The notes beneath the pieces were generated by a model. That model was not told the origin of the DNA and searched no databases. It worked only from the letters and a program-made list of their open reading frames with translations. A DNA stretch of 64,000 bases from positions 25,130 through 89,129 of the IMG/VR virus record IMGVR_UViG_3300033153_009650, one strand, 5' to 3'. How positions within the stretch are numbered: the first letter of the stretch is position 1; each line of letters starts with the position of its first letter. This stretch comes from a virus. Shown one piece after another: positions 11,511 to 57,716 of the stretch. Both the position numbers and the translations under genes were made by a program.

Positions 11511-11531
11511 TCTTTCACCTCCTTTCTAAGT

Positions 11532-11560: not shown

Positions 11561-11572
11561 ATTTTTTTTGTT

Positions 11573-12226: not shown

Positions 12227-12354
12227 TTTCTTTCTCCTTTCCAAAATAACGTTTCATTATAAGTTTCCATGTTATTTTTCTGAATGGAATTGATCCTACA
12301 GCTATATCATAATATGAGCAGTATGCTTATCTCCGGCAGCTAAGTAAATTTTCA

Positions 12355-12762: not shown

Positions 12763-12868
12763 TTTTCCTCTCCTTTCGTTTATAGTTTTTAGCCATTTAT
12801 ATAATTCATCTCCGATAGCTTCTCTTAAGTTTTTTTCTTGATGTTTTGCTATATTTTTTATTCTTGAT

Positions 12869-36901: not shown

Positions 36902-36947
36902 TTTTTAACACAATAAAATTTAAATGAAGGAGGTAACTTAGTTATGG
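36902..36947 (+). repeat. 46-bp duplicated leader, copy 2
   Basis: Exact copy of 36397-36442, ending with the ATGG of the major capsid gene. Keeping both copies identical suggests selection or gene conversion for equal, strong translation. Confidence 0.9.
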
Positions 36948-37915
36948 ATCTTATTTATAAAGGAAAGGCTGTTGGTGATGTGGCAATGAAATTGCTACAG
37001 TCAAATTTCAACATCAACGCTTTAAGAACAAATGATGTCTTGCTCTATGACGAATGGAAGGTTATTGATAAGGCGGTTTTAAAAGCGGCAACGCAAAGAC
37101 TGCTTGGTATTGGCGATCTTCAGAGTCGTGGACTGACATATGACATTCCAAATGGTCTGGCAAAGACGGTTTTGGCGTGGCAGGATTCGTCTGATCTTGA
37201 AGATGCATCCATGAGTATGGATGGTATTACCAGAGGTCAAAGAGATCGGCCGGAATTTGATATCAACTATATTCCTCTGCCAATTATCCATTATGATTTT
37301 TCTTACTCAGTTAGGGAAATTCAACAGAGCAGAGATGGTAGTATGCCTTTGGATACCACCACGTCAGAGTTGGCGGCAAGAAAGGTAATTGAGAAAGCCG
37401 AAACAATTTTATTCCAAGGCTCAAGTTCCTACAAGTTTGGCGGAGGAACCATTTATGGTTATCAGGATGCTCCCCAAAGGAATACCGGTAGCTTGACTGC
37501 TAATTGGGATGACAGTGCAGCTTCCGGAGCAACCATTCTGGCTGACGTTCTTGCCATGAAGCAGGCTTCCATAGATGCGTATCATTTCGGACCCTGGGTA
37601 CTTTATATTCCCACAAATTTTGAGTCGGCAATTGATGATGATTTCAAAGCCAATTCCGATAAGTCCATTCGGACAAGGTTACTTGAAATTGCAGGGTTGT
37701 CCGATATCAAAGTTGCAGACTTCTTGAGTTCCGATAATGTGGTTCTGGTGCAAATGACTACTGATGTTGTCAGGCTTGTTAATGGTCTGGCTATTACCAC
37801 AGTACAATGGGATTCTGAAGGTGGGATGCAAGCCAATTTTAAGGTTATGATGATCATGGTTCCTCAGATCCGTAATGACCAGAATAACAGGTCCGGTATT
37901 GTACACTATACCTAA
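36944..37915 (+). CDS. Major capsid protein, encapsulin-like HK97 fold
   Basis: 323 residues. GVISTR-like features of encapsulin relatives are seen as: DEWKVIDKAVLKAATQRLLG, IPLPIIHYDFSYSVREIQQS, ARKVIEKAETILFQGSSSYK, IYGYQDAPQRNTGSLTA, YIPTNFESAIDDDFKANSDK and WDSEGGMQANFKVMMIMVPQ. Position after decoration and DUF2213 genes supports this. It forms the icosahedral shell. Confidence 0.8.
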   Translation: MDLIYKGKAVGDVAMKLLQSNFNINALRTNDVLLYDEWKVIDKAVLKAATQRLLGIGDLQSRGLTYDIPNGLAKTVLAWQDSSDLEDASMSMDGITRGQRDRPEFDINYIPLPIIHYDFSYSVREIQQSRDGSMPLDTTTSELAARKVIEKAETILFQGSSSYKFGGGTIYGYQDAPQRNTGSLTANWDDSAASGATILADVLAMKQASIDAYHFGPWVLYIPTNFESAIDDDFKANSDKSIRTRLLEIAGLSDIKVADFLSSDNVVLVQMTTDVVRLVNGLAITTVQWDSEGGMQANFKVMMIMVPQIRNDQNNRSGIVHYT

Positions 37916-37954: not shown

Positions 37955-38575
37955 ATGGCTTTATATAGATTAAAAAGAGGATGCGGACCTCATCGTAAAA
38001 AGGTTGAGGGCGTGATGAAGAAGCTCGTTCCTGGAGACGAAGTTGAATTGACTTCTCAAGAGGTTGTTGCGTTTAAAGATAAGTTCGAGCTTGTAGGCCC
38101 GCCGCCCCCAGATCCTGAAGATCAGATTCCTTTGGTTGGATTAACTCTTCAGCATCAAGGGGGAGGGAAGTACAATGTTTTTAATGAGGCAACAAAAGAG
38201 TTTATCAATGATGAACTTCTGACAAAGAAAGAGGCGGAATCTCTTATCTCTGATGTTGCTAAAGCAGAGGAAGGAATTGAACCGGGGAAAGATTCTGTGC
38301 TTGGCAAATTGCTTTTTAACCTTCGTAATAAAGAAGAGAAAGAAGATACTCCTAATCTTGACGAAGAGAATATGCCGGTAGATAAAGAAAATCAAGAACA
38401 AAAGAAAGACGAGGAGACGGTAGAAGATGGCCCGGAACCAAAAAATGATAAGGAAACAAAGAAGGATGAATCCACCAAAGTGGAAAGTCCCAAAGATTTG
38501 GCCGGGAAGAACCGTGTTCCTCGTAGGCGGAGGTCCGTCTCTAAAAAAGGTAAATCTAAGTCTAATAAAAAATGA
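37955..38575 (+). CDS. Head-associated protein with low-complexity tail
   Basis: 206 residues. The N-terminal 60 residues (LYRLKRGCGPHRKKVEGVMK, PGDEVELTSQEVVAFKDKFE) look like a small beta domain common after capsid genes. The rest is increasingly charged, with a run of Lys/Glu/Asp and a final RRRR and KKGKSKSNKK. The last 149 bases are also read in another frame as the start of the following gene. Confidence 0.6.
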   Translation: MALYRLKRGCGPHRKKVEGVMKKLVPGDEVELTSQEVVAFKDKFELVGPPPPDPEDQIPLVGLTLQHQGGGKYNVFNEATKEFINDELLTKKEAESLISDVAKAEEGIEPGKDSVLGKLLFNLRNKEEKEDTPNLDEENMPVDKENQEQKKDEETVEDGPEPKNDKETKKDESTKVESPKDLAGKNRVPRRRRSVSKKGKSKSNKK

Positions 38576-39089
38576 AAGAGTGATAGGTATTAATAACGCC
38601 TATCAATTAGGATCTTGGGTAGATGTGTGTTGGTTTACCGATTCAAGATGGTTCGATTGGCATAAAGAGAAACTTCTTAATTTTGCTGGTTTGAAAGTCC
38701 ACTGTGTCAATCGTCTAAAATATGTTGGTTGGCTTAAACGTTTGCTTAGAGGGAAACCAATGGGAATAGAAAAGAATCCCGGAGTAGTTTCCTGGAATAA
38801 ATGTAGTGGATCAAGTGCAATAAATCTTGCATATCATTTTGGGGCTAAGAGAGTTGTATTGATCGGGTATGATATGCAACGGGTAGACGATGAAGCCAAC
38901 TGGCACAGCGACCATCCATATCCCAAGAAAGATCCTTATGATAATTTCTTAAAATGTTTTCCATCGATTGCTAAAGACGCCGAGGAGTTAGGGCTTGAGA
39001 TCATTAACGCGACTCCCGGGAGCTTAATTGATGTTTTTCCAATTACGACATTAGAGGAGGCTATCCATGCAAGCAATGTCTCAACATAA
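38427..39089 (+). CDS. DUF115/MptE-like protein (Maf glycosyltransferase-related)
   Basis: 220 residues. TVFLVGGGPSLKKVNLSLIK (nucleotide-binding GGGPSL motif), VIGINNAYQLGSWVDVCWFT, then SSAINLAYHFGAKRVVLIGYDM. This matches the DUF115 family, which includes pterin pyrophosphokinase-like enzymes and flagellin-modifying Maf glycosyltransferases. Beside the sugar island it may transfer or handle a sugar. It overlaps the preceding gene by 149 bases. Confidence 0.7.
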   Translation: MARNQKMIRKQRRMNPPKWKVPKIWPGRTVFLVGGGPSLKKVNLSLIKNERVIGINNAYQLGSWVDVCWFTDSRWFDWHKEKLLNFAGLKVHCVNRLKYVGWLKRLLRGKPMGIEKNPGVVSWNKCSGSSAINLAYHFGAKRVVLIGYDMQRVDDEANWHSDHPYPKKDPYDNFLKCFPSIAKDAEELGLEIINATPGSLIDVFPITTLEEAIHASNVST

Positions 39090-39372: not shown

Positions 39373-41325
39373 ATGAAAATAGGTTGGTTTATTGAAGAAA
39401 ATAATTTAGTTGCCGAAGCTCTCATGCAAGAAATGGAAAAGGATGAACATTTGATCAATGAGATGGGAGAAATTACCATCGTCTTGTCTATTGATCAATT
39501 TAATTATCCAGAAGAAAAATCTGTTCAAAGGAAAAGAACTCCAAGAAAAAAGGTTCTAAGAATAAAAGAAAAAGAGATCGAAGATATTCCAATAAGTATA
39601 GCAATGACTAACTATAATCATGAGCGATATATCAAGGCGGCAATCAAGAGTGTTGTTAAGCAAACTCATAAAAATTGGGAATTAATTATAGTAGAAGACA
39701 ATTCTACTGATGGATCTCTTCAGGCTATTGAAGAATGTATTGTTAAATGTGGAATAGAAAAAAAGGTTAATGTAATTAAGCATGATCAGAATAAAGGTTA
39801 TGGAGCAAGTTTAGGAGAGTCAATTACGGCTGCTACAAATGACTTGGTCGTTATCCTTGATTCAGATGATGCTTTATATACTAATACAGTTTTTCAGACG
39901 TGTATTAACACTCATCAAAACCATCCAGAAGCTTCAATGACATATAGTAATTTTATAGTTTGCCACGATGATTTGAAAATGAAGATAGATAAAAAAGGAA
40001 AACCTCTTCAAACAAAGTCAAGACAAATCGAGGAGGGAGAAGATTGGTTAGATCGTTCTCCAAAAACAGGAGAAGTCCTTAGAACAAATTTGCCAATCAG
40101 TCATCTAAAAGTATTAAAACGAAAATTTTATGATTTGACAGAAGGCATAGACCCTGCTCTTAAAAAGACAGTAGATAAAGATTTGGTTTTAAAATTAGAG
40201 GAAGTAGGAAAACTTATTTACATAGACAAGCCTTTATTATTATATCGAAAGCATACAGGTTCTATGAATGCGGTTTATCATCGTTCCAGTACAAAAGACA
40301 AACAGAAAATCATAAATGCTCGACATCAAATATTTAATAGTACTTTGAAGAGAAGGGCTAAACAGAAAGAAACTAATTTATGTATATTTATTGATGGGTC
40401 AAGAAGAAATGCGATAAGAAGAATGTTTTCTTACTGGAGATCTCAAGGGGCTGTTTTAGTCGCTCATCCAACGGAGGCTAATGTCCAATTTTCTACAGCA
40501 AGAAAATCTATCAAATCTAATTTGCCAACACTATTACGATTGGATGGAATTTATTACGACAAGGATTTGGACTATAGAATAAAAAATGAGGGCATTAGTC
40601 AGTCACATTCTTTTGTAGAAGCCATTGTGTATCAAAGCGATTGCTCTCGATCAATGTGTGAAAGGTATCTTCTTGAAAGGAAAACAAATTATCATCAAAT
40701 AATACATAATGGGGTTGATAAATCAAATTGGTATAATCCGGCCGATCATGAGGGAATTAATGTTGTTTCCTGTTCTAAGTGGCGTAGGATAAAAAGATTG
40801 CCTGAGATGATTGAGATATTTAAGGCGTTCCGAAAAGTTTATCCTGAAGCAAAGCTTCATATAATAGGGGAAATGGCCAGAGGAGGAAAGAAAATCTCTT
40901 CTGAGAATGTCATTTATTATGGATCTCAATCATTAGAAAAAATTAAAGAAATATATCGAACTGGAGATATAGCCTTGCATTTATGTAAAAAAGATTCTTG
41001 CCCAAGTAATGTTCCTGAATCAATAGCTGCCGGAATACCTGTTGTCACCACTAATCTTTGTGGAGGGGCAACGGAAATGTGCGAGCTTGTAGAAGGGTGT
41101 AAGATTGTCTATGAAGGGGAACAAGATTTTAAACCAGATTATATCTATCGAGATTCTTATAATGAAATGTCAAAGAAGACAGAAGAAAGTTTTGTAGAAG
41201 CAATGGTTAGTATTATACAGAATAAAATTCGAGTAGAATTACCAGAACAACTATCAATTGAATATGTCGCTCAAAAGTATTTAACAATGATGGAGGGAAT
41301 ATGTCAAAAAAAAGCTATAAACTAA
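39373..41325 (+). CDS. Two-domain glycosyltransferase, GT2 plus GT4
   Basis: 650 residues. Residues about 70-300 are a GT-A glycosyltransferase of family 2: ISIAMTNYNHERYIKAAIKS, LIIVEDNSTDGS, and LVVILDSDDALY with the DxD. Residues about 335-630 look like GT-B (GT4): HNGVDKSNWYNPAD, AKLHIIGEMARGG, SCPSNVPESIAAGIPVVTTN with the Glu of the EX7E motif. Such fusions build two successive sugar links. First gene of the island; the start follows AAGGATTTCGCT. Confidence 0.85.
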   Translation: MKIGWFIEENNLVAEALMQEMEKDEHLINEMGEITIVLSIDQFNYPEEKSVQRKRTPRKKVLRIKEKEIEDIPISIAMTNYNHERYIKAAIKSVVKQTHKNWELIIVEDNSTDGSLQAIEECIVKCGIEKKVNVIKHDQNKGYGASLGESITAATNDLVVILDSDDALYTNTVFQTCINTHQNHPEASMTYSNFIVCHDDLKMKIDKKGKPLQTKSRQIEEGEDWLDRSPKTGEVLRTNLPISHLKVLKRKFYDLTEGIDPALKKTVDKDLVLKLEEVGKLIYIDKPLLLYRKHTGSMNAVYHRSSTKDKQKIINARHQIFNSTLKRRAKQKETNLCIFIDGSRRNAIRRMFSYWRSQGAVLVAHPTEANVQFSTARKSIKSNLPTLLRLDGIYYDKDLDYRIKNEGISQSHSFVEAIVYQSDCSRSMCERYLLERKTNYHQIIHNGVDKSNWYNPADHEGINVVSCSKWRRIKRLPEMIEIFKAFRKVYPEAKLHIIGEMARGGKKISSENVIYYGSQSLEKIKEIYRTGDIALHLCKKDSCPSNVPESIAAGIPVVTTNLCGGATEMCELVEGCKIVYEGEQDFKPDYIYRDSYNEMSKKTEESFVEAMVSIIQNKIRVELPEQLSIEYVAQKYLTMMEGICQKKAIN

Positions 41326-42137
41326 CAGAAGAACATAAAAAGAAAATATCCTTAGCCCGTATTAATAAAAAACTCTCCGAGATTACTAAGGAAAAAATGT
41401 CATTATCAAAGTCAGGTAAAAGTAATCCTATGTATGGTAGAAAACATTCTGAAGAAACAAAAAAGAAAATATCTCTGTCGAGTTTAGGTAAAAAGTTTTC
41501 TATGGAAACAAGAAGAAAAATATCTTTGTCCAGTAAAGGACGTATTGGGTATAAACACTCTGAGAAAGCAAGGAAAGCAATGTCTATTGCCCGTATTGGT
41601 ATGAAGCTTTCAGAGGAAACAAAACAAAAAATGTCTGAACTACATAAGGGGCAAAAATCTTGGAATAAAGGCAAAAAGATGTCAAAAGAATTTAGGGCTG
41701 CAGTTTCTAAATCCAGGGTAGGAAAGAAACATTCTGGAGAGACAAAAAGAAAAATATCAATTGGCCAAAAGGGGAAGATAGTGTCAGAAGAAACCAAGAA
41801 GAAGCTGTCCGTTGCTAATTCTGGTATAAATCATTCTAATTGGAAAGGTGGAATATCCTGTGAGCCTTATTGTGATGTTTGGTTAGATAAAGAGTTTAAA
41901 GAATCTATCAAAGCAAGAGATAACTATAAATGCCAAAATCCTGATTGTTGGGGTAATTGCAATCACTTGTCTTTAGGAATTCATCATATTAATTATATTA
42001 AAAAAGATTGTCGCCCTAACAATTTGATAACTTTATGTCTTAGTTGTAATTTTAGAGCAAATTTTAACAGAGATTATTGGGAAGAATTTTATAGGGATGT
42101 TATATTATTAAAAAGGAAAAATTGTCAAGCTAATTAG
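41301..42137 (+). CDS. NUMOD3/HNH homing endonuclease
   Basis: 278 residues. The first 170 are about nine copies of a NUMOD3-like helix unit (SEETKKKISLSSLGKK, HSEKARKAMSIARIGMK and so on) that bind DNA. The C-terminal part is an HNH nuclease, SIKARDNYKCQNPDCWGNCN, GIHHINYIKKDCRPNNLITL, CLSC. A free-standing homing endonuclease, probably a selfish insertion in the sugar island. Its start overlaps the GT gene by 25 bases. Confidence 0.85.
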   Translation: MSKKSYKLTEEHKKKISLARINKKLSEITKEKMSLSKSGKSNPMYGRKHSEETKKKISLSSLGKKFSMETRRKISLSSKGRIGYKHSEKARKAMSIARIGMKLSEETKQKMSELHKGQKSWNKGKKMSKEFRAAVSKSRVGKKHSGETKRKISIGQKGKIVSEETKKKLSVANSGINHSNWKGGISCEPYCDVWLDKEFKESIKARDNYKCQNPDCWGNCNHLSLGIHHINYIKKDCRPNNLITLCLSCNFRANFNRDYWEEFYRDVILLKRKNCQAN

Positions 42138-42149
42138 GAGCAATAAAAC

Positions 42150-42878
42150 ATGGAAGTTCATAGGGAAGAAGAATTTATACTTGAGAAATTTAAACAAGGT
42201 TATTCCATGGCTCGTTATGGTGATGGAGAATTTAAAATAATGCGGGGCTCATCTATAACAAATATGCAGGTATATGATGTAGGATTAGAACAAGGACTTT
42301 TGAAGGTATTTGAAAAACCTTTAGAAAAATTACTTATAGGAATACCCGACCCTCTTTGCACAAGGTCCTATGTTGAAGGTTTTCATAAAAAATTCGACAA
42401 ATTTATTTTGGACAAGGCGGCGAAAGAAGAAAGTATTTTTGTTTCAGCCTTTTTCTCGCGCCCAAGTTTAGTCAATTTAGACTCTGAAGAATATTTTGAT
42501 AAGATAAAAAATATTTGGAAAGATAGAGAGGTCGTTCTTGTTAATTCCAAACCCGATCTTCCTAATCATTTTTTATTTAGAGATAGTATTTGTGAGTTTG
42601 TGGAAATCTCTCCGAGGAATTGTTTTTTGAATTATGAACAAATCTTGTATGCCTGTTATCAATTCTTTGGAGAAAATAAAATATTTATTCTTTCGGCGGG
42701 GCCGGTAGCTACTTGTCTTGCTTATGATATATGTCTTGAAGGAGAACAAGCTCTCGATATGGGAGCGATTGCTTTTGAATATAGTTTATTTAAGAAAGAA
42801 CCCCATCCGGAGAAGTGGAGTTATCAGGATGCATACAAAATAAAACGTGGATATTTACGGGGAATAAATGATGAGTGA
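42150..42878 (+). CDS. GT-D fold glycosyltransferase (DUF1792-type)
   Basis: 242 residues. SMARYGDGEFKIMRG is the RxGDGE motif of GT-D enzymes; ILSAGPVATCLAYDICLEGE and QALDMGAIAFEY complete the fold. The founding member DUF1792 transfers glucose in O-glycosylation of bacterial serine-rich adhesins. This suggests sugar transfer to a protein or glycan. Followed with 11-bp overlap by a methyltransferase. Confidence 0.78.
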   Translation: MEVHREEEFILEKFKQGYSMARYGDGEFKIMRGSSITNMQVYDVGLEQGLLKVFEKPLEKLLIGIPDPLCTRSYVEGFHKKFDKFILDKAAKEESIFVSAFFSRPSLVNLDSEEYFDKIKNIWKDREVVLVNSKPDLPNHFLFRDSICEFVEISPRNCFLNYEQILYACYQFFGENKIFILSAGPVATCLAYDICLEGEQALDMGAIAFEYSLFKKEPHPEKWSYQDAYKIKRGYLRGINDE

Positions 42879-43650
42879 AAAAGAATCAAAATTAGAAGAA
42901 TTAAAAACTGTCCAGAAACGGTTGAAAGAAGAAGTCAAAAAATTAGAGGGGAGTGAAAAGTGGAAAAGGCTGAAGGTATTGGAAAGTTCTATAAAATCGA
43001 AATTGAAAAAAATAGAAAGAGTAGAAAGGGAGAAGAAATTTCAAGGATTGAATGATATAAAAGTCAATATCATTCATACAAAAGAAGGATTACAACGAAG
43101 AGTAGAAGACGGTATTGTTATGAACGAAGGCAATTTTGTTCGGTTGTTGAATGCCTTTATGTACTTTACAGATTGTGCGAATAAGGATCTTCCTCTTTTA
43201 GATATTGGTACACGAGAAGGATGGTTTTTAGAGTTCTTGATAAAAGCAGGATATAAAGATGTCCAGGCCATAGAGATCTGTCAAGAGGGAGTTGATCAGG
43301 TAAAGGCTAAGGGGTTAAGATGCACAAAAATGGATGTGCAAAAAATGCCATTTCAAAATCTGTTTGGAACTATTACTGCGATTCATGTTTTGGAGCATTG
43401 TTCAAATCCACAAATTGCGGTTCATAATATCTATAACGCTTTGATGAGGGAAGGTATTCTCTATATTGAAATTCCATTAGAGTCAGATGCTAATCCTAAT
43501 AAATCAGCCCATTTTAGTAGCTTTCCAAGGAAGGAAATCTTGTTTAGTTTATTTGATGCCCGGTGGTCATTGTTGAAGAATGAAGTTGTTAATATGAATA
43601 ACACAGGAACTAAAAGAAATCTTCGAAGTGTTTTTAGAAAGGCTTACTAA
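42868..43650 (+). CDS. SAM methyltransferase with N-terminal coiled coil
   Basis: 260 residues. First 50 residues are a charged coiled coil. LPLLDIGTREGWFLEFLIKA is the SAM-binding motif, then AIEICQEGVDQ, ITAIHVLEHCSNPQIAVHNI and EGILYIEIPLES, a class I fold. Probably methylates a sugar or peptide within the island. Overlaps neighbours on both sides. Confidence 0.75.
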   Translation: MMSEKESKLEELKTVQKRLKEEVKKLEGSEKWKRLKVLESSIKSKLKKIERVEREKKFQGLNDIKVNIIHTKEGLQRRVEDGIVMNEGNFVRLLNAFMYFTDCANKDLPLLDIGTREGWFLEFLIKAGYKDVQAIEICQEGVDQVKAKGLRCTKMDVQKMPFQNLFGTITAIHVLEHCSNPQIAVHNIYNALMREGILYIEIPLESDANPNKSAHFSSFPRKEILFSLFDARWSLLKNEVVNMNNTGTKRNLRSVFRKAY

Positions 43651-44390
43651 TGAAAATTTGTTTACTTAAATTTAAAAGTGCTTCGGCTCGCATTACAAAT
43701 AGCATTATGGAAAATTCTTTAATGGATTTAGGGCATAAACTGGTTGAACATTCTAAAGCAGAGATTGTGATTGGGATAAGAAATTTCTTTGAAATAGATA
43801 AGAAGTATTCGGATAAGAAATACATTTTGTTACAAACAGAAGGATATAAAAATAAGGCCGCTCAGGTAGAATCCTTTTATTCTTTTGGCCCTGATGAGAT
43901 TTGGGGGTTTGATATTGAAAACGAAAGAGAAAAATATACTCCTCTTGGATATCATCCTTGTTTACTTTTTGAATCCTTTTTGCCAGAAGATGTCGATGTT
44001 GGGTTTATGGGTTGGCATAGAGGAAGGAGAGAGGCTTGGAGAAATAAGGTTAGAAATAAATGGGCCATTCTGAATTCTCATGAGGATAAACTCCGGGGCG
44101 AAAATATCTCGCGAGCAAGAATAAATTTGAACCTTCATTTCAGCGATGGAGTAACGATTACAGAATGGACTCGGACGGCTTACTTTCTTGCAAATGAACA
44201 GTTCTTTATTAGTGAAGAAGTTTATTGTCCGATTGTTGTGCCCCAATTTAACAGTATTGAATCTTATGATGGATTGGTTGATTTTTATTTGTCTCATCCA
44301 AAAGAAAGAAAGAAGAGAGCTCGGGAAATGACTAAGGAATATCGAACCAACTTTGACATGAGAAATATTTTGAAGGAGAGAGGATTGTAG
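43650..44390 (+). CDS. Glycosyltransferase-like protein
   Basis: 246 residues: ILLQTEGYKNKAAQVESFYS, FGPDEIWGFDIENEREKYTP, DVDVGFMGWHRGRREAWRNK, RARINLNLHFSDGVTITEWT, then a C-terminal helix with REMTKEYRTNFDM. The GWHRG and ARINLNLHF pieces resemble GT-B enzymes such as CgeB-like transferases, with no clear nucleotide motif. Position supports a sugar-transfer role. Confidence 0.55.
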   Translation: MKICLLKFKSASARITNSIMENSLMDLGHKLVEHSKAEIVIGIRNFFEIDKKYSDKKYILLQTEGYKNKAAQVESFYSFGPDEIWGFDIENEREKYTPLGYHPCLLFESFLPEDVDVGFMGWHRGRREAWRNKVRNKWAILNSHEDKLRGENISRARINLNLHFSDGVTITEWTRTAYFLANEQFFISEEVYCPIVVPQFNSIESYDGLVDFYLSHPKERKKRAREMTKEYRTNFDMRNILKERGL

Positions 44391-45358
44391 TGGAACTAAA
44401 TAGTACAGATAAGAAAGTTTTATATCACCTAAAAGATTTTGAAGATCTTTTGGAAGGGAAGTTTGTGTTTCCCATAACCTGTGAAATCGATCCTTCAAAT
44501 AGGTGCATGTTGTCCTGTTCCTTTTGTTTGTTTAAAGATAGGTTGAAAGATTGTCAGGTAGATTTGGATTGGGATGTTTATTGTAATTTAATACAAGAAC
44601 TCAAACGGGGAGGGACTAAGTCTGTCACTTTTACTGGGGGCGGAGAACCTCTTTTGAATCCTCGTTTTAATGATATGGTAAAGCTTGCCTGTGATATGGG
44701 ATTTCAAATTGGTTTAATTACTAATGGAGTCTTGTTAGATCGAGTTAATTGTTTAGATTCTTTTTATTTTATAAGGATATCTTTGGATGCGGCAACGGCA
44801 GAAACTTATAAAAAGATAAAAGGGAAACCAATGTTTTATGAAGTTTTAGCTAATGTTGACAGGGCTGTTATTAGGACGAAGGGTTCTGATAAGACAGTTA
44901 TTGGTTTATCGTTTGTAGTTTGTGAACAGAATAAAAAAGAGGTTGAAAAGATGCCTCAATTAGCAAAGGATTTTGGAGTTAATTATTTACAGATTAAACC
45001 AGCTTGGATAGATGGAGATATTTTCAATGGTTACGAAGATGTTTTAGGACAAGAGAATGTAATTTTAATGAGGAGGCAGAAAGCAAGAGATCATTCTTCT
45101 TGTCAAATTGCAGGATATGTTGGAATAGTTAATGCTGATGGGAGCGTTTATTTTTGTTGTCAACATCGAGGGAATCCTTATTTTCAGTTGGGCTTTTTAC
45201 AAGATGCTCCGTTTTTGGATTTGTGGAAGAAAAGAAAAAATCTTCAACCGGATATAACAAAATGTCCAATGTGCCGTTATACAAATTACCTTCATGCTTA
45301 TAGAAGGGTGACGGGAACGGAAGAGTTTTCGTTTTTTGAACACAAGAATTTTTTGTAG
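44390..45358 (+). CDS. Radical SAM/SPASM enzyme
   Basis: 322 residues from a GTG overlapping the previous TAG. CMLSCSFC is the CxxxCxxC cluster motif, VTFTGGGEPLLNP the GGEP motif; the C-terminus has CQIAGYVG, FCCQHRG and CPMCRY, auxiliary-cluster cysteines of SPASM type. Such enzymes epimerise, dehydrogenate or modify sugars and peptides. Its substrate here may be the island's sugar. A second, different radical SAM enzyme is at 8852. Confidence 0.82.
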   Translation: MELNSTDKKVLYHLKDFEDLLEGKFVFPITCEIDPSNRCMLSCSFCLFKDRLKDCQVDLDWDVYCNLIQELKRGGTKSVTFTGGGEPLLNPRFNDMVKLACDMGFQIGLITNGVLLDRVNCLDSFYFIRISLDAATAETYKKIKGKPMFYEVLANVDRAVIRTKGSDKTVIGLSFVVCEQNKKEVEKMPQLAKDFGVNYLQIKPAWIDGDIFNGYEDVLGQENVILMRRQKARDHSSCQIAGYVGIVNADGSVYFCCQHRGNPYFQLGFLQDAPFLDLWKKRKNLQPDITKCPMCRYTNYLHAYRRVTGTEEFSFFEHKNFL

Positions 45359-45370
45359 GAGAGAATAACC

Positions 45371-46387
45371 ATGGAAATATTCAAAGACAAAATAGTTTTA
45401 GTTACAGGCGGGACAGGTTCCCTTGGCAAGGTACTCGTGAAACGTGTATTGTCTGGAGAAGAAGGAATGCCTAAAAAGGTTGTCGTCTTTTCGAGAGACG
45501 AGGCAAAACAACATTATATGAGAACAGAATACTATCATGATATAGCGCCTGCCTCTGACCGGCTTGAATTTGTAATTGGAGACATTCGTAATTATGCCAG
45601 TGTTTGTTCTGTCATAAAAAATGTCGACATCATTATTAATACAGCAGCATTGAAACAAGTTCCTGTCTGTGAATATTTTCCAGAGCAGGCGGTATTAACT
45701 AATTGTATGGGAGTTCAAAATATAATTCGAGCTATTAATGAAAATGACTATCCAGTTGAGACGGTTATTATTATTAGTACAGATAAAGCATGTAAGCCCG
45801 TGAATGTTATGGGTATGACAAAAGCAATTCAAGAGCGCATGGCTATTGTGGCAAACATCGCAAATCCTGGTACTCGTTTTATCTGTGTTAGGTATGGGAA
45901 TATTATATCCAAACTTTCTGTTGGTTCTGTAATTCCTATTTTTCAACAACAAATCAAAGAAAGGGGGCCTGTTACTGTTACATCTTTAGAAATGACTCGT
46001 TTCATGTTTACTATGGATCAAGCGGTTGATATTGTATATGCCGCTATAAGAGAGGGCTTATCTGGAGAGGTTTATATTCCTATACTTATTTCATTTAAAA
46101 TGATTGATGTTGCCAGGGCAATGATTGACTCGAAGGAATGTGAGATTAAAATAACTGGGATACGGCCCGGAGAAAAAGTTCATGAGATTATAATTTCTGA
46201 AGATGAGTATATACGGGTTTTGAAAAGAGGAGATTATTATGTAATCGCTCCAATGTTGCCAGAACTTTCCAATACTGATAATGAGGAGAAAAACATTCTA
46301 ACGGGAGAGTATAATTCTGCTAATGTTCTTATTGACTTTCAGGAAACGAAAGACTTGTTAAAGAAATATAATCTTTTACCTGAGTGA
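45371..46387 (+). CDS. UDP-sugar 4,6-dehydratase (PseB/CapD-like)
   Basis: 338 residues. VLVTGGTGSLGKVLVKRVLS (NAD-binding GxxGxxG, residues 13-19), FVIGDIRNY, NTAALKQVPVCEYFPEQAV, ISTDKACKPVNVMGMTKAIQ and IRPGEKVHE. The MxxxK triad corresponds to that of PseB/FlaA1 enzymes. It makes the 4-keto-6-deoxy intermediate from UDP-GlcNAc-like sugars. No matching aminotransferase is seen, so the host or a neighbour would supply later steps. Confidence 0.88.
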   Translation: MEIFKDKIVLVTGGTGSLGKVLVKRVLSGEEGMPKKVVVFSRDEAKQHYMRTEYYHDIAPASDRLEFVIGDIRNYASVCSVIKNVDIIINTAALKQVPVCEYFPEQAVLTNCMGVQNIIRAINENDYPVETVIIISTDKACKPVNVMGMTKAIQERMAIVANIANPGTRFICVRYGNIISKLSVGSVIPIFQQQIKERGPVTVTSLEMTRFMFTMDQAVDIVYAAIREGLSGEVYIPILISFKMIDVARAMIDSKECEIKITGIRPGEKVHEIIISEDEYIRVLKRGDYYVIAPMLPELSNTDNEEKNILTGEYNSANVLIDFQETKDLLKKYNLLPE

Positions 46388-46399
46388 GAGAGGCTTGTA

Positions 46400-46996
46400 A
46401 TGAAGAATTTGGTGATAGCTCCGCATGTTGATGATGAAGTTTTAGGTTGTGGAGGTATTTTGAATAAAGACTTTCATGTTGTCTTTTGCGGAATGCAAGA
46501 ATATCATATTCTGCCTGCCGTAGAAAGATATGAGGAGCTAAAATCTGTAGCTGATTATTTAGGATTTACTTGGCGTATGTTGACTATTGATAAAGTGAAT
46601 TATTATAGGAAACAGAATTATATAGATCTTCTTCAAGATATAATCAATGAGGGAAGACCGGACAAGATTTTTATTCCTTATCCTTCTTACAACCAGGATC
46701 ATCAAGCTATTTATAAGGCTTGTATGATAGCTCTTAGACCCCATGATAAAAATCATTTTGTAAAGAAAGTTCTTATGTGCGAATCGACTGATTGTAATTG
46801 GGGTTGCGCTCCTTATGAAATAAACCATCTTGTTAAGATTGATATAAATCGAAAACTTAAAGCTTACTATTTATATGGTTCCCAGGTAAGGAGACATCGT
46901 TCTCCAGATTATATAGAAGCAATAGCGGTTACAAGGGGGCAAATGATGGGAGAATCATATGCAGAGGGGTATATCATAAAACGATGGATAGAATAG
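46400..46996 (+). CDS. LmbE/PIG-L family deacetylase
   Basis: 198 residues. [13 protein letters not shown] (PHxDDE, residues 8-13) is the zinc-binding motif; [20 protein letters not shown] carries the second His. Members remove N-acetyl groups from GlcNAc-type sugars. With the following LpxD-like acyltransferase this suggests deacetylation followed by acylation with another group. Confidence 0.85.
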
Positions 46997-47853
46997 AACT
47001 TGGCGATATTTGCCAATTAATAAAGGGTCCTTATTCTGTGACTAATCCGGGGGCAGGGATATCAATCGAGAAATTTTCTCCGCTGGATGAAGCCACAAAC
47101 AATTCGCTTTCGTTTTGTGACGACCCAAGGGTGGGAAATTTTGCCCGCGCTCCTTTGGATATATTAGATAATGGGTATAGAGTAAAACCAAGTGATCAAG
47201 ATAAAGAGATAATATGGAAAAGGGTTAGAGAATCGGAAGCAGGAGTAATAATTTTACCAGATTATATGATGGGAAGCGTGTTTTATAAAGAAAAAACTTT
47301 TATCTTTGTGGAAAATCCACGGGTAGCTTTTATGAATGTTGTTAAACATTATTATCCTGGGAGGAATGATGGTATTCATCCAACTGCTGTCATTATGGAC
47401 TGTGTTGTTATAGGAAAGAGAGTAATGGTTGGACCTTATACTATTGTGGGTACTATCAGCGTTGCAAATCGCAGAGACAACAAAGGAAGATTGATTAATT
47501 TTCCACAGATAGGAAGAGTGATTATTGAAGATAATGTTGAAATTCATTCTCATGTTTGCATAGATCGTGGGGCTTTAGGGGACACAATTATTGGAGAAGG
47601 AACCAAAATAGATAATCTTGTTCATATTGCCCATAATGTAAAAATCGGGAAGCATTGTTTTATTGTTGCTAATGTTATGCTTGGAGGTTCATGTTCCATT
47701 GGAGACTACAGTTGGATTGCTCCTTCTGTTTCTATTCTAAATGGAATTAAGATAGGAAAGAATTGTACGATAGGAATGGGCTCTGTGGTAATGCACGATA
47801 TTCCTGATAACTCAGTTGCATATGGGGTTCCAGCAAAGGTAAAGAACCATTGA
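46984..47853 (+). CDS. LpxD-like left-handed beta-helix N-acyltransferase
   Basis: 289 residues. N-terminal 110 residues resemble the uridine-binding domain of LpxD. Then hexapeptide repeats: [60 protein letters not shown] with the catalytic-type His. The end has [10 protein letters not shown]. It would transfer an acyl group to an amino sugar. The ATG lies inside the end of the deacetylase gene. Confidence 0.8.
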
Positions 47854-49484
47854 AAACAATTATTAGCTTAGAATACGAGCATATGAATTGGAGTTGGGGT
47901 AATATCTGTCAAGCTCTTTTGAAAGAATTAAGATCGGATTTTAAAATTGTATCAGTGGATTACAAATTATGGAGAAAGAGAAATATGAAAGCCGAAGAAA
48001 TAAAAGCTGATGGAGATTTCTACTTCCTAAGTCAGAATGTTGCGCAGCTTCAAGACCTAAAAGATTATAGAAAAGTCATATGTCGTTTAGGAGGCAACCT
48101 TTCTTTTGAAGATCAATCTCCAATTCGAGTTGAAAAGTATTTAAGGCGGATATCTAAGTGCTTTGCTGTTATTGCCACTAATGAAAAGCTGGCAGGAATA
48201 GCAAGACAGGTTCATAAAAAAGTTCATCTAATTCCTAATGGACTAAATCTGGAGGAATGGAAATTTAAAGAAAGAAAAGTTGAGGAATCTGTTTTAAAGG
48301 TGGGGTTTGTGGGTAATGTTCAGACCTTACAAAAAAGCAAATATAAAGGATATGGAATTATACAAAAGGCTTGTTCCGTTTTAGGTTATCCTTTGTATAC
48401 AGCTCTCTATAAGGATAATCAGATTCCTTATAAACAAATGCAGGAAAAGTTTTATGATAAGATCGATGTTCTTGTTTTATTAACAGACGGAGAAGGATGT
48501 AGTAACGCTGTTATGGAAGCTCTTGCTTGTGGGATACCTGTTATAACAACAAAGGAAGCAGGATACCATGGAGAGAAGATGGTGCATAGGGAGAACGTTT
48601 TGTTTTGCAGAAAGTTTAAAAAGTTTCTTATATCCCAATTAGAAGAATTAAAAAATGATAAGATTCTTTTTAAGAAGATTTCTTTGGGAGGGCGTAAGTT
48701 TGCTGAAGAACATCATGATATAAAAGTAATTGCTAAAGAGTATCGAAAAATATTTTTAGAATGTTCTGAACAATCTCCTGTTGCTTTGAAGCAACTTTTG
48801 AGCAAGATGAAAGCAGCTAAATCCAGACGGAGTGGTGTTCCTGAAGATGTTACTGTTATGTGTGTTTTAAAATCCGGAGGTATTTTTACAAAAGAGTGGG
48901 TATTGAAATTAAAGAATACGCTTGAGCGAAATGTAACTACTTCTTTTGATTTTGTTTGTCTTACTGATTTTGATAATGTTGATGGCTGTAGAACAATAAA
49001 GTTGAAAGACGATTTGCCAGGTTGGTGGTCTAAAATAGAACTTTTTAGGGAGGGGTTAGTTGATACGAAAAATATAATTTACTTTGATCTTGATACTATC
49101 ATTCTCAGAAATATTGATGATTTATTTTTAATCCCTCTTAATTTTGTTGCCTTACAACCTTGGAATATTACGAGTAGAATAAATCGCCACCTTGCATCTG
49201 GTATAATGGGCTGGAGAAATGGAGATTATTCTTTTATTTATGATAAGTTTATATTTCAGGAGATAGAAGAACAATCTTTTAGTGGAGATCAAGAATATAT
49301 TTCAAGAGCACTATCTCAAGAGAATAAAACTTATCAACCTCTTCAAAAATTAATCCAGGGTATTTTCTCTTACAAAAGAGATTGTCGGCAAAAGTTACCT
49401 GGAGGAGCAAGAATTGTTTGCTTTCATGGAAATCCGTCATTGGACAGAGTCAGAAGGAAGTGGGTAAAAAGACATTGGAGATAA
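47850..49484 (+). CDS. Two-domain glycosyltransferase, GT4 plus GT8-like
   Basis: 544 residues from a TTG that overlaps the previous stop. Residues 1-300 are [53 protein letters not shown]. Residues about 330-540 have [20 protein letters not shown] (DxD of GT-A) and [13 protein letters not shown], like GT8. Probably adds two sugars to a carrier or protein. Confidence 0.78.
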
Positions 49485-49485
49485 T

Positions 49486-50244
49486 ATGAAAATTTTTAAT
49501 CCGATATTGATTACTGGCGCGGCACGATCCGGAACTTCCCTGGTTGCTGGTATTGTGAATATGAGTGGGGCATGGGGAGGAGATTTAGCTGGTCCGACAA
49601 GATTTAACAGAAGAGGAATGTTTGAAAATACACAAATCAGAAACGATCTTGTTAAGCCTTTTTTGAAAGATGCAGGCTGTGATCCAATGGGGCAAAAGCC
49701 TCTTCCAAGAATACGAAGACAACTCCAAGGTAATGATGCAATTCTTATAGGCTTTGGTAATGGCGATCGTTTTGTATCTGTCAATACTCATTTAGCTGCT
49801 ATATGGATGCATAACCTTGAAGAAATCTTGAAAAGTCAAGGATATAATGGGCAAAGGTTTTTTTACAAGGGGGCAAAAATGTGTTTGATGTGGCCTTTGT
49901 GGCATCTTCTTTTTCCTGAAGCTAAGTGGATAATTGTTAGAAGGGATGTTGAAGATATTGTCAGATCTTGTTTAAGAACTTCTTTTATGAGAGCTTTTCA
50001 AACGCGTTCTGGTTGGCTTAATTGGGTTTCTGTTCATGAAAGAAGGTTTGAAGAAATGTATGAACAGAAATTAGATATAAGGGAGGTATGGCCACAACGT
50101 ATGATGAATGGAGATTTTTCTGAAATGCAAAATGTGATTAACAGTCTTGATTTAGAATGGGATCTTGAAAAAGCAAAAGCCTTTGTAGATCCTAATCTTT
50201 GGAATAGGGGCAAACGAGATGGTAGTAAGAGTAGTAAAGAATAA
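49486..50244 (+). CDS. Sulfotransferase family protein
   Basis: 252 residues. ITGAARSGTSLVAGIVNMSG contains the 5'-phosphosulfate loop (GAARSGTS, 11-18); WIIVRRDVEDIVRSCLRTSF is the 3'-phosphate-binding region. Uses PAPS to sulfate a sugar or protein. Last gene of the island, directly before a head-completion gene. Confidence 0.78.
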   Translation: MKIFNPILITGAARSGTSLVAGIVNMSGAWGGDLAGPTRFNRRGMFENTQIRNDLVKPFLKDAGCDPMGQKPLPRIRRQLQGNDAILIGFGNGDRFVSVNTHLAAIWMHNLEEILKSQGYNGQRFFYKGAKMCLMWPLWHLLFPEAKWIIVRRDVEDIVRSCLRTSFMRAFQTRSGWLNWVSVHERRFEEMYEQKLDIREVWPQRMMNGDFSEMQNVINSLDLEWDLEKAKAFVDPNLWNRGKRDGSKSSKE

Positions 50245-50258
50245 TATAGGAGAATAAA

Positions 50259-50624
50259 ATGTCTACGCGTGTAACAAGCGATGAGGTTAAGGAGATTATT
50301 GATACTGATATTTCTGACATATCAACTTTTATAACAGCCGCTAATTTAATTGTTACTGATAAGTTAGGTTCGGCAGGTTTGAGTTCTGCCTTGATGAAAG
50401 AAATAGAACGATGGCTCTCGGCCCACTTCGTCGCTATCAGAGATCAGATGCCACAATCAGAAAAGACAGGAGAGAGTTCAATTAAATATCAAGGTAAAAC
50501 AGATATGGGGCTTGATTTTACTTCTTATGGCCAACAGGTCAAACTTCTGGATACTTCAGGGATATTGGTGGCTCTTGGTAAAAGAGCAGCGGAGTTTATT
50601 GCTCTTGATTTAGATTTAGACTAA
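50259..50624 (+). CDS. Head completion / head-tail connector protein
   Basis: 121 residues. VTSDEVKEIIDTDISDISTF, ITAANLIVTDKLGSAGLSSA, LMKEIERWLSAHFVAIRDQM, MGLDFTSYGQQVKLLDTSGI. This pattern is typical of connector proteins that follow the capsid genes, here displaced by the island. Confidence 0.7.
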   Translation: MSTRVTSDEVKEIIDTDISDISTFITAANLIVTDKLGSAGLSSALMKEIERWLSAHFVAIRDQMPQSEKTGESSIKYQGKTDMGLDFTSYGQQVKLLDTSGILVALGKRAAEFIALDLDLD

Positions 50625-50644
50625 AAAAAAGGAGGGGGATGAAA

Positions 50645-51028
50645 ATGAAAAAATTGTTAAGGATAGGACTTGCGGCTTTTGTGCTATTTGCTTTTCTTTC
50701 AATAGCACAGGCGGCTGATTATGTGACCGCCACAATTAGTAGCGCTCCGCCTGCGGCAGGAACCTGGACTGATGGTATTGCTCCTGCTCTTAAAGCAAGA
50801 GGGGGATTTTTAAGCATTACTATTTCTGGTACTTGGGTAGCAACCGTTACTCTCCAATGTTCGACCGATGCGGGTGTAACATATAGTGACGTTGATTATA
50901 CTTGGACCTCGAATATTCGAAGAGCTTTAGTTGATCCAGAAGCAGGAGTAAGATACCGAATTGGAGTTAAGAATGGGGATTATACTTCTGGTTCTGTTAT
51001 TGTTCGATTAGGTCGAATGAAAAAGTAA
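50645..51028 (+). CDS. Secreted Ig-like small protein with signal peptide
   Basis: 127 residues from the second ATG, nine bases after GGAGG. MKKLLRIGLAAFVLFAFLSI then AQA is a Sec signal with an AxA cleavage site. The mature part is beta-rich: LSITISGTWVATVTLQCSTD, GVRYRIGVKNGDYTSGSVIV. It resembles beta-sandwich attachment proteins. Signal peptides on virion proteins are unusual; it may be an exported surface protein. Confidence 0.6.
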   Translation: MKKLLRIGLAAFVLFAFLSIAQAADYVTATISSAPPAAGTWTDGIAPALKARGGFLSITISGTWVATVTLQCSTDAGVTYSDVDYTWTSNIRRALVDPEAGVRYRIGVKNGDYTSGSVIVRLGRMKK

Positions 51029-51046
51029 GGAAAGGAGGTGGAGAAA

Positions 51047-52786
51047 GTGAAAAAGACTTTTTTGATTTTAGTTTTGGGTTTTTTGTTAGGGCTCCTTCCC
51101 TTACAAATCCACGCTGGACAGTTTGGTGAAGATTTGGGTCTTTTGGGGGTTGGAAATGTAATTAATACCGCTCCTGAGTATTGGGATAATATTACAAACA
51201 AGACCCCATCCGCAAATGCTTTATATGATTATTTTATTATATTTGATCCTGATCTTGATGGGACTATAGAGGGAGGAGAAGTAAAATTAAATACTGTTGG
51301 TTCTCCTGCTTACGACGATGTTCAAGATTGGTTGAATACAACGCAATCTGCAGGGATCCTTTCTGGAGGAGAACTTACGGATGCTGGAGCCAGTGGGGTT
51401 ACAGTTTCGGCTGGTCAAGGATTTATCAAATTGACAGACAGCGAAATTGGAGAAGTGGCGTTCTTCAGTTGGGCGGAAACTCTCGTACCTTTGACTGATG
51501 CGGTTTTAAATTATATTTATGTAACTACTTCTGGTGTGACATCAACCACGACAGATTCAGATATAAATCATACAACGGAACTTCGACTTGGAAAAGTTTA
51601 TAAAGATGGAAGTGAATTGCATATGCTTACTGGGGGAACTGATGCTTATAATTTAGCACGTAAAGTTCATCGTAGATTGGGAAAAGTAGACGGTTTTGCG
51701 AGAGGGGCCGGTCTTGTTCTTGGTGATGGGGGGAATCAAACTATTACAATTACGGCTGGAACATTTTTTAAGGGGTTAAATGAATTTAATGTAGACTCTT
51801 TTGATTCTGCTATGTCTCCATTTTCGACTTGGTATTATGACGGTTCTGCTTGGGTAGAAACAACTGGGGTCACTGAAGTGAGTATTACTCAGTATAACAA
51901 TACAGCTTCTGGTCTTGCAAATTTAACTTCTTCAGATAAATATGGAGTCCATTTTGTTTACATTCATGAGGATGAAGATGTCCATGTAGTATATGGACAA
52001 GATAAATATAAATTAGCAGAAGCTCAAGTAACAACTCTCCCTTCAAGTTTACCAGCTAAAGTATCTCTTATGGGAGCTGCGGTAGGTAGGATAATTGTTG
52101 AGAAGGACGTTGTTACTTTTAAAGAAGTTTCTGACTATTGGAAGGAGGGGTTTGAAGCTTCTGGAGTTGTAGATCACAATGGATTAGCAAATCTGCAAGG
52201 GGGAGAGGTTGATCAATATTACCATTTAACAAATGCTCAACATGGGGATCTTACTACAGGATATAGAACGATTTATGTTCCTGCTAATGTAATGACCCCG
52301 ACAGCTACGGATTTTGCAACTGCTGGTACTCATGAGTATGCGACGAATGATGTCAACCTTGATTATTATTCGTTCGATGGGGCGACCAGACAGTATATTG
52401 AATATAGTCGAGTGTTAGATGCTCAGTGGGATCTTTCGACTATTAAGTTTAAGTTTTATTGGACCCCTGGAGCAAGCTCTTGTACTGCGGGGGATACAGT
52501 TGAATGGGCAGTAACAGCAGAAGCTGTATCTGATGACGATCCTATTGATGTAGCCTCTGGAGTTAGCCAGGTCGTATCTGATACTGTAACTGCTGGTAAG
52601 AATGGGGATATGCATATCACGGCGGCTACACCAGCATTAACTGTTGCGGGTACTCCTGCCTCTGGAGACCTAATCCATTTTAAATTTAGCAGGAATGTAA
52701 ATGGAATTGATGATATGGAGGAGAAGGGATGGTTGGTTGGAGTCTTTTTTCAATATCGAATAGGCACTATTCCAGCGGCATGGTAG
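51047..52786 (+). CDS. Probable adhesin or tail-fibre protein with signal peptide
   Basis: 579 residues from a GTG, nine bases after GGAGG. MKKTFLILVLGFLLGLLPLQ and then IHA is a signal peptide. The body is beta-rich and repetitive with LTDAGASGVTVSAGQGFIKL, DGGNQTITITAGTFFKGLNE and YYHLTNAQHGDL, which recalls tail-fibre and baseplate-wedge proteins. No coiled coil. It could be an exported host-surface protein or a virion spike with a retained signal. Confidence 0.6.
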   Translation: MKKTFLILVLGFLLGLLPLQIHAGQFGEDLGLLGVGNVINTAPEYWDNITNKTPSANALYDYFIIFDPDLDGTIEGGEVKLNTVGSPAYDDVQDWLNTTQSAGILSGGELTDAGASGVTVSAGQGFIKLTDSEIGEVAFFSWAETLVPLTDAVLNYIYVTTSGVTSTTTDSDINHTTELRLGKVYKDGSELHMLTGGTDAYNLARKVHRRLGKVDGFARGAGLVLGDGGNQTITITAGTFFKGLNEFNVDSFDSAMSPFSTWYYDGSAWVETTGVTEVSITQYNNTASGLANLTSSDKYGVHFVYIHEDEDVHVVYGQDKYKLAEAQVTTLPSSLPAKVSLMGAAVGRIIVEKDVVTFKEVSDYWKEGFEASGVVDHNGLANLQGGEVDQYYHLTNAQHGDLTTGYRTIYVPANVMTPTATDFATAGTHEYATNDVNLDYYSFDGATRQYIEYSRVLDAQWDLSTIKFKFYWTPGASSCTAGDTVEWAVTAEAVSDDDPIDVASGVSQVVSDTVTAGKNGDMHITAATPALTVAGTPASGDLIHFKFSRNVNGIDDMEEKGWLVGVFFQYRIGTIPAAW

Positions 52787-52796
52787 GGGGTAAATA

Positions 52797-57516: not shown

Positions 57517-57716
57517 CTCAAAGCCTGGGAATGACAGTTCGGGAGATGTTATCCAGAATGGACGCGCATGAATTGACTGAATGGAGCGCTTTTTTCGTAT
57601 TGGAACAATCTGGATTGAAAGGGAAGAAACAAAGTCCGGAAGAGTTGGGAGAGGCTTTGAAGGGTTTGGCTAAAGTGAAAAAGAGAAAAGACAAACCTGA
57701 GAGGAAAAAGAAATGA
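57142..57716 (+). CDS. Tail assembly chaperone, long (gpGT-like) frameshift form
   Basis: 191 residues by -1 frameshift at A AAA AAC (57471-57477), joining 57142-57477 to 57477-57716. After the slip the frame reads RRFYFRLAQSLGMTVREMLS and RMDAHELTEWSAFFVLEQSG. The segment LAxxLGMTVREMLxRMxxxELTEW is typical of the T-domain of these chaperones. The extension recruits the tape measure protein. The ATG at 57531 lacks a good ribosome site, which supports the frameshift. Confidence 0.78.
57471..57477 (+). promoter_or_regulatory. -1 ribosomal frameshift slippery site A AAA AAC
   Basis: In the zero frame the codons are ACA AAA AAC, the canonical heptamer. After a -1 slip the reading continues as CTT CTT GGC AGG without a stop to 57716. 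Confidence 0.8.

What the first reader, a model, noticed from the sequence alone, without database searches (positions are those of the whole stretch)
39373..50244. 11-kb glycan island inside the structural operon
Between the capsid genes and the head-completion gene lie two bifunctional glycosyltransferases, a GT-D enzyme, another glycosyltransferase-like protein, a 4,6-dehydratase, a deacetylase, an LpxD-like acyltransferase, a methyltransferase, a radical SAM enzyme and a sulfotransferase. Together they could build and attach a modified sugar to the virion or the host surface. The DUF115/Maf-like gene at 38427 might transfer it.
Basis: partly seen in the sequence, partly recalled or inferred. 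Interest (0 to 1): 0.75.

Follow-up and report, generated by a model that had tools for sequence, protein, structure and literature searches.

The report
Phage sugar-decoration locus beside capsid genes
Between the capsid gene and the first neck gene this phage carries a swappable set of sugar-making enzymes; relatives keep the same three anchor genes at that spot but change almost everything between them, which suggests that each phage paints its own sulfated sugar coat on its particle.

Summary
The island is real. They evolve under purifying selection (dN/dS about 0.15 against a 97%-identical relative that lacks the endonuclease).

The main new result comes from 70 distinct relatives found by capsid protein. 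The slot is a fixed-site, hypervariable glycan locus. Three core families (DUF115/sialyltransferase-like, a GT8-type glycosyltransferase, a sulfotransferase) recur. The other 87 families each occur in at most 7 of 50 loci. Cassettes range from nothing, to DUF115 alone, to DUF115 plus sulfotransferase, to 9-12 kb. Phages with an unrelated capsid carry the trio in the same slot, D3-like phages carry DUF115 there, and P1 has DUF115 and GT8 homologs (pmgO, pmgQ).

Cassette proteins lack membrane segments, so export to the host surface looks unlikely. Best explanation: cytoplasmic synthesis of a variable, often sulfated glycan attached to a virion protein (about 0.6). No glycan has been shown. Virion glycosylation and glycan islands in structural regions are known; the conserved frame, the sulfation and the P1/D3 link look new. 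Verdict: new variant of a known kind.

The parts
36944..37915 (+). major capsid protein (left boundary of the slot)
   Evidence: Pfam DUF6260 3e-24 and Linocin_M18; phrog_771 virion structural; 41% identical to the StAshley major capsid protein
37955..38575 (+). small conserved head-operon protein between MCP and DUF115, with a variable charged tail; function unknown, possible acceptor
   Evidence: homologs after the MCP in most relatives; overlaps the start of the DUF115 gene
38427..39089 (+). core gene 1: DUF115/GT42 (sialyltransferase/Maf)-like transferase
   Evidence: phrog_4603 1e-39; CstII profile match 4e-4; first sizeable gene of the slot in 37 of 38 resolved loci
39373..41325 (+). bifunctional GT2 + GT4 glycosyltransferase
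   Evidence: Pfam PF00535 8e-25 and PF00534 8e-16; fused to DUF115 in L005
41301..42137 (+). NUMOD3 homing endonuclease inserted in the island; not part of the pathway
   Evidence: NUMOD3 1e-36; absent in G001
42150..42878 (+). GT-D glycosyltransferase
   Evidence: PF08759 3e-31; TIGR03728 3e-27, below cut-off; fused to the methyltransferase in L005
42868..43650 (+). SAM methyltransferase
   Evidence: PF13489 7e-13
43650..44390 (+). unknown protein kept with GT-D and dehydratase in L005 and L022; possibly a glycosyltransferase
   Evidence: no family match; structure model useless; homologs
44390..45358 (+). radical SAM/SPASM enzyme
   Evidence: PF04055 3e-16, PF13186
45371..46387 (+). UDP-HexNAc 4,6-dehydratase of the FlaA1/CapE superfamily
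   Evidence: PF02719 9e-83; PDB 4j2o 5e-64, with Asp-Lys kept and Met at the Tyr position
46400..46996 (+). PIG-L-type N-deacetylase
   Evidence: PF02585 5e-12
46984..47853 (+). LpxD-like hexapeptide N-acyltransferase
   Evidence: PF00132 8e-25; LpxD models 187-192 bits, below cut-off; PDB LpxD 1e-29
47850..49484 (+). bifunctional GT4 + core gene 2 (GT8-type, phrog_1962) glycosyltransferase
   Evidence: PF13692; phrog_1962 4e-29 over residues 335-544
49486..50244 (+). core gene 3: PAPS-type sulfotransferase
   Evidence: Sulfotransfer_3 7e-8, above cut-off; last gene before head completion in 31 of 38 resolved loci
50259..50624 (+). head-completion/neck protein (right boundary of the slot)
   Evidence: 35% identical to the StAshley gene that follows its island-free slot; syntenic in 42 distinct loci

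Best explanation
The island is the variable part of a virion-glycosylation locus. During late expression with the head genes, cytoplasmic enzymes make a special sugar: the 4,6-dehydratase gives a 4-keto-6-deoxy-HexNAc nucleotide, and PIG-L plus the LpxD-like enzyme swap its N-acyl group, with the radical SAM enzyme possibly adding a further change. The GT2/GT4, GT-D and GT4/GT8 enzymes assemble it into a short glycan, which is methylated and sulfated. The DUF115/GT42-like enzyme makes one of the end transfers, linking the glycan to a virion protein (capsid, head or tail subunit) or capping it. Relatives keep the anchor enzymes at the fixed site and exchange the middle genes, so the coat chemistry differs from phage to phage, as in O-antigen loci. 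Shown here: gene content, fixed site, conserved anchors, variable middle, purifying selection, absence of membrane proteins. Inferred: the order of steps, that the glycan is on the virion, and its role (changing what the particle sticks to, or hiding it from binding proteins or grazers).
For: Families of sugar synthesis, transfer and modification. Fixed slot: of 61 distinct relatives with at least 1.5 kb downstream of the MCP, 57 have DUF115 in it. In 38 resolved DUF115-bearing loci DUF115 is the first sizeable gene in 37 and the sulfotransferase the last in 31; in these contigs 65 of 67 DUF115, 39 of 40 sulfotransferase and 51 of 51 GT8 genes lie in this interval, about 31% of the coding length counted. 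3 core and 87 accessory families over 50 loci, 51 of them singletons. On the MCP tree the DUF115 label needs only 2 changes, so it is kept while the middle turns over. The same slot holds DUF115+SULF+GT8 behind an unrelated capsid, phrog_10 (L150), and DUF115 alone in Pseudomonas PMG1. In P1, pmgO (DUF115, 3e-33) and pmgQ (GT8, 2e-46) lie downstream of an annotated late promoter. Interval proteins lack TM-like segments (307 of 311; outside 625 of 664; Fisher p=6e-4). Pfam APS_kinase, the maker of the sulfate donor, matches 2 of 103 accessory proteins, and L020 has such a P-loop protein just upstream of its sulfotransferase. No integrase or resolvase match in the 89-kb record. Precedent: glycans on mycobacteriophage capsid and tail-tube subunits (cited in PMC12619734 and PMC11256854).
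Against: No acceptor is identified and no glycan has been seen in any of these phages. P1 pmgO and pmgQ are non-essential for lytic growth (PMC10695390), which fits decoration but also a host-directed role. The GT42 assignment is remote: Pfam MptE-like is below its cut-off, and Foldseek of a good model (pLDDT 94.5) found nothing at E<=0.001. Caulobacter and Brevundimonas jumbo phages have DUF115 next to tail and lysis genes, so the association is with structural genes in general, not only the capsid. Some LPS-core transferases are soluble too.
Confidence: 0.6

Rival explanations
1. Host-surface modification: the enzymes decorate LPS core or O-antigen of the infected cell, blocking superinfection or re-adsorption of progeny.
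For: This is how glycosyltransferases in the structural-region island of pelagimyophages were read (PMC7029224); phages known for O-antigen conversion exist; PHROGs files the GT8-type family under moron/host takeover; PIG-L and LpxD-like enzymes recall lipid A chemistry.
Against: No flippase, polymerase, ligase or GtrA/GtrB-like membrane protein: no island protein has a TM-like segment and only 4 of 311 cassette proteins have even one. Locus embedded in the head operon in at least three capsid settings. No integrase or resolvase match.
Confidence: 0.22
2. DNA hypermodification: the transferases glycosylate modified bases of the phage genome.
For: Virus-encoded glycosyltransferases do hypermodify DNA (Pyle 2024, cited in PMC12619734); this phage has a 7-deazaguanine gene set elsewhere, so its DNA is probably modified.
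Against: The deazaguanine genes are in the oppositely oriented early region, not in the island; the core genes are also in P1, which to my knowledge has no glycosylated DNA; the sulfotransferase, N-acyl swap and GT-D fit protein or surface glycans; hypervariability next to capsid genes is not expected for DNA protection.
Confidence: 0.06
3. Unlinked cargo: metabolic or moron genes picked up at a tolerant insertion point of the head operon, with no common product.
For: A homing endonuclease has inserted there; content is highly variable; promoter and terminator scans show nothing special.
Against: Purifying selection on every island gene; conserved first and last genes and three core families almost never found outside the slot; gene fusions joining DUF115 to GT2-GT4 and GT-D to methyltransferase in L005.
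Confidence: 0.1

Closest known systems
Glycosylated virions of mycobacteriophages Che8, Rita and relatives (Freeman 2023, as cited in PMC11256854 and PMC12619734)
   Same: Phage-encoded glycosyltransferases; glycans reported on capsid and tail-tube subunits.
   Different: In Maravista, a Che8 relative, the transferase genes are few and near the 3' end of the genome (PMC11256854). Here there is a large head-operon locus with sugar-nucleotide synthesis, methylation and sulfation and a hypervariable middle. Direct glycan evidence exists there, not here.
Host-recognition hypervariable island of pelagimyophages and cyanomyophages (PMC7029224)
   Same: Hypervariable island at a fixed site in the structural region, with several glycosyltransferases, GT8 the commonest.
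   Different: Those are T4-like phages; that island lies between VrlC and gp14, holds tail fibres and averages 44.6 kb in pelagimyophages. Here the slot is between MCP and head completion, holds no fibre gene in the window, and has DUF115/GT8/sulfotransferase anchors.
Phage P1 pmgO-pmgQ and the MCP-DUF115-Ad1 order of D3-like phages (PMG1)
   Same: Homologous DUF115 (P1, PMG1) and GT8-type (P1) genes in late or head-gene context.
   Different: One or two enzymes only, no sugar-synthesis genes, no sulfotransferase; the P1 genes lie beside baseplate and tail genes, not the MCP.
Bacterial flagellin and adhesin O-glycosylation (Maf with PseB; GT-D of accessory Sec clusters), from general knowledge
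   Same: The same enzyme classes, known there for cytoplasmic protein O-glycosylation.
   Different: No PF01041 sugar aminotransferase in this record; family equivalog cut-offs not reached.
O-antigen and capsule loci of bacteria, from general knowledge
   Same: Fixed place, conserved genes at the ends, exchangeable sugar genes between.
   Different: No export or ligase proteins; all island proteins are soluble.

Membership tests
Virion-glycosylating phages (Che8 type) | Phage encodes glycosyltransferases and sugar-modifying enzymes | tested here: met
Virion-glycosylating phages (Che8 type) | Glycan covalently bound to capsid or tail subunits | not testable with these tools
   needs mass spectrometry of virions
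Virion-glycosylating phages (Che8 type) | Homology of the transferases to those of Che8 or Corndog | not tested
   the source paper was not held and the Che8 transferases were not compared
Pelagimyophage-type structural-region glycan island | Hypervariable gene content at a fixed site in the structural region | tested here: met
Pelagimyophage-type structural-region glycan island | T4-like phage, island between VrlC and gp14, with tail-fibre genes | tested here: not met
   MCP is a DUF6260/phrog_771 type, slot is MCP to head completion, no fibre gene among the island genes
GT42 sialyltransferase/Maf (DUF115), gene 38427 | Sequence-profile similarity over the catalytic domain | tested here: met
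   phrog_4603 E=1e-39; CstII profile match E=4e-4 over positions 17-196 of 207; Pfam MptE-like below cut-off
GT42 sialyltransferase/Maf (DUF115), gene 38427 | Same three-dimensional fold | tested here: inconclusive
   AlphaFold pLDDT 94.5, but Foldseek gives no PDB match at E<=0.001 and only low TM-scores
PseB (inverting UDP-GlcNAc 4,6-dehydratase), gene 45371 | NCBIfam TIGR03589 equivalog score of at least 407.75 | tested here: not met
   280.4 bits; catalytic Tyr replaced by Met as in CapE and 4j2o. A dehydratase of this superfamily, not shown to be PseB
LpxD, gene 46984 | NCBIfam TIGR01853 equivalog score of at least 242.5 | tested here: not met
   186.9 bits; LpxD-like only
PAPS-dependent sulfotransferase, gene 49486 | Sulfotransfer_3 above the curated cut-off and both PAPS-binding motifs | tested here: met
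   33.4 bits against 27; 55 of 74 family members carry both simple motif patterns
O-antigen/capsule export locus | Multi-spanning flippase, polymerase or ligase | tested here: not met
   no TM-like segment in any island protein; no protein with two or more among 311 cassette proteins

The most novel reading that the evidence does not exclude
A widespread, undescribed 'virion glycotype' locus: phages with unrelated capsids keep a DUF115/GT8/sulfotransferase core between capsid and neck genes and exchange the middle genes, so that particles wear a variable, sulfated, O-antigen-like glycan; P1 (pmgO/pmgQ) and D3-like phages carry reduced versions that went unnoticed in laboratory phages.
Probability: 0.35. 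Interest if true: 0.85.

Novelty: new variant of a known kind. Interest (0 to 1): 0.62.

Why it matters
Phage particles are usually taken to be bare protein. If true, a large group of uncultivated phages has a dedicated locus that varies particle chemistry the way bacteria vary O-antigens, with conserved attachment and sulfation enzymes. It also gives a testable meaning to two unexplained morphogenesis genes of phage P1 (pmgO, pmgQ) and to the DUF115 gene beside the D3-type capsid gene, so the question can be settled in E. coli K-12 with gene deletions and mass spectrometry. A phage-encoded sulfotransferase as a core gene is of interest too: the role of sulfotransferases in phage genomes has been called unclear (PMC10580990).

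Tried and rejected
Foldseek of the DUF115 model (pLDDT 94.5) against the PDB gave only low TM-scores and no E<=0.001, so no structural support is claimed. The structure of 43650 from 3 sequences was useless (pLDDT 38) and was not searched; its profile hits nothing in the PDB beyond E=0.05. The sulfotransferase has no PDB match at E<=0.01 by sequence and no phage-record match in INPHARED. Promoter and terminator scans are at chance level. Absence of DUF115 goes with a different, longer tail-tube-like gene (3 of 3 against 0 of 29), but all three fall in one outgroup clade, so this is one event and no evidence of the acceptor. A PseB-to-pseudaminic-acid pathway was rejected as stated: the equivalog score is not met, no PF01041 aminotransferase is in the record, and the catalytic Tyr is Met. 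The idea that the whole island travels as one block was rejected: L022 and L005 share parts of it in different order and make-up. Papers on P1 pmgO/pmgQ gave only essentiality data.
Full report
Where it is. The window is bases 25130-89129 of an 89129-base viral record. The plus-strand half is a head and tail operon: large terminase-like protein, portal (PF06381), MuF-type protein, head protease-like protein, head decoration (phrog_766), major capsid protein (DUF6260/phrog_771), and after the island head-completion and tail genes.

What is in the island. Two refinements: 41301-42137 is a NUMOD3 homing endonuclease sitting at the very end of the GT2-GT4 gene, absent from a 97%-identical relative (G001), where the transferase gene runs straight into GT-D. 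And 43650-44390 matches no family, so its activity is open. The dehydratase is closest to the short FlaA1/CapE/FnlA-type UDP-GlcNAc 4,6-dehydratases; it keeps the Asp-Lys pair but has Met where PseB has Tyr, as do CapE and 4j2o. The LpxD-like enzyme scores 187-192 bits on LpxD models, below their cut-offs, and carries an IAHN segment resembling that of LpxD (sequence; residue identity with the catalytic His is from memory). PIG-L and the LpxD-like gene overlap by 13 bases, which suggests an N-acyl swap (inference).

Under selection. Against G001 all eleven island genes have dN/dS from 0 to 0.31, pooled about 0.15. The DUF115 gene has no amino-acid change at all.

A fixed slot with a variable filling. 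A scan with a capsid alignment returned 80 loci (357 candidates existed; the best 80 were kept), 70 distinct at 95% capsid identity. Between the capsid gene and the head-completion gene they show one plan: MCP, small gene, DUF115, variable genes, GT8-type transferase, sulfotransferase, head completion. Of 61 loci with room, 57 have DUF115 in the slot; 42 loci are resolved to the right boundary, with gaps from 281 to 9604 bases (larger ones, like the window's own, cannot be resolved with 10-kb flanks). In 38 resolved loci with DUF115, it is the first sizeable gene in 37 and the sulfotransferase the last in 31; 155 of 158 copies of the three core families lie in the slot. Over 50 loci, 311 genes fall into 90 families: the 3 core ones in 32-44 loci, the other 87 in at most 7, with 51 singletons. 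Accessory proteins include methyltransferases, GT2, GT11, short-chain dehydrogenases, epimerases, sugar kinases, FkbM, TylF and APS kinase. Accessory content is poorly predicted by capsid similarity: even at 60-70% capsid identity 78% of pairs share no accessory family. Some accessory genes are more alike than the capsids around them (dehydratase 76% against 54% in L005), which points to exchange between phages.

Minimal and empty forms. DUF115 alone (L049; L095, where it follows head completion), DUF115 plus sulfotransferase (L070, L074, L082), sulfotransferase alone (L158, a Bacteroidota MAG), and nothing (L062, L072/L077, L094, Brevundimonas phage StAshley). On the capsid tree the empty phages fall outside the DUF115-bearing clade and only L158 inside it lacks the gene; two changes suffice. 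So DUF115 is old and kept, while the filling turns over.

Beyond this group. DUF115 with sulfotransferase and GT8 sits in the same slot in L150, whose capsid (phrog_10) and portal are of another family; L151 has the same capsid with DUF115 and GT8. In the D3-like phage PMG1 a DUF115 gene lies between the major head protein and the head-tail adaptor. Phage P1 has pmgO (DUF115, 3e-33) and pmgQ (GT8, 2e-46) in one late-promoter region; both are non-essential for lytic growth (PMC10695390). Caulobacter and Brevundimonas jumbo phages have DUF115 next to tail and lysis genes with a methyltransferase or unknown genes.

What it works on. The enzymes are soluble: no island protein has a TM-like segment, and 307 of 311 cassette proteins have none, against 625 of 664 other proteins of the same loci. 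With no export machinery, a cytoplasmic acceptor is most likely, and the head operon position makes virion proteins the best candidates. Maf/DUF115, GT-D and 4,6-dehydratases of this type are known from bacterial protein O-glycosylation (general knowledge). Glycans on capsid and tail-tube subunits are on record for mycobacteriophages (PMC12619734, PMC11256854). The rival of host-surface change is the reading given to a comparable island in pelagimyophages (PMC7029224) and cannot be excluded. DNA modification is least likely; this phage has a separate deazaguanine gene set.

Judgement. It is a new variant of known kinds: virion glycosylation, and glycan islands in structural regions. Database coverage limits the claim of novelty: the paper library holds only open-licence texts.

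Noticed in passing
window 7861-12876 (-), also 4997-5944: QueC, GTP cyclohydrolase I, QueE-like radical SAM and QueD-like (PTPS) genes: a 7-deazaguanine synthesis set, probably for DNA modification; 4997 looks DpdA-like by eye but has no Pfam match.
   Followed up: partly
window 50639-54686: Three genes right after head completion whose products start with hydrophobic, signal-peptide-like segments; 51038 matches a tail-fibre family. Present in G001, absent in L005; 52797 is only 57% identical to G001 while neighbours are 94-100%. A second variable block, unusual for virion proteins.
   Followed up: partly
window 41301-42137: NUMOD3 homing endonuclease at the 3' end of the GT2-GT4 gene, with a natural empty site in G001; L005 has another NUMOD3 gene beside its MuF-type gene.
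   Followed up: yes
L157 (CP070742.1), L159, L158: Members of this phage group lie in Candidatus Zixiibacteriota MAGs, one a 3.7-Mb chromosome record (likely a provirus), and in a Bacteroidota MAG: possible hosts.
   Followed up: partly
L154 (phage P1) 5977-8535: P1 pmgO and pmgQ are homologs of the DUF115 and GT8-type core genes; pmgP also matches DUF115 weakly.
   Followed up: partly
window 57713-60256: Tape-measure gene differs from G001 in its middle (80-86% identical at the ends only, lengths 847 and 794 aa), while flanking genes are 99-100% identical.
   Followed up: no
window 61327-64000 and L012:114-3281: The record appears to begin and end inside the same long tail gene, as expected of a circularly permuted, nearly complete genome.
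   Followed up: no
window 22486-23001 (-): Pentapeptide-repeat protein in a locally G+C-rich stretch.
   Followed up: no
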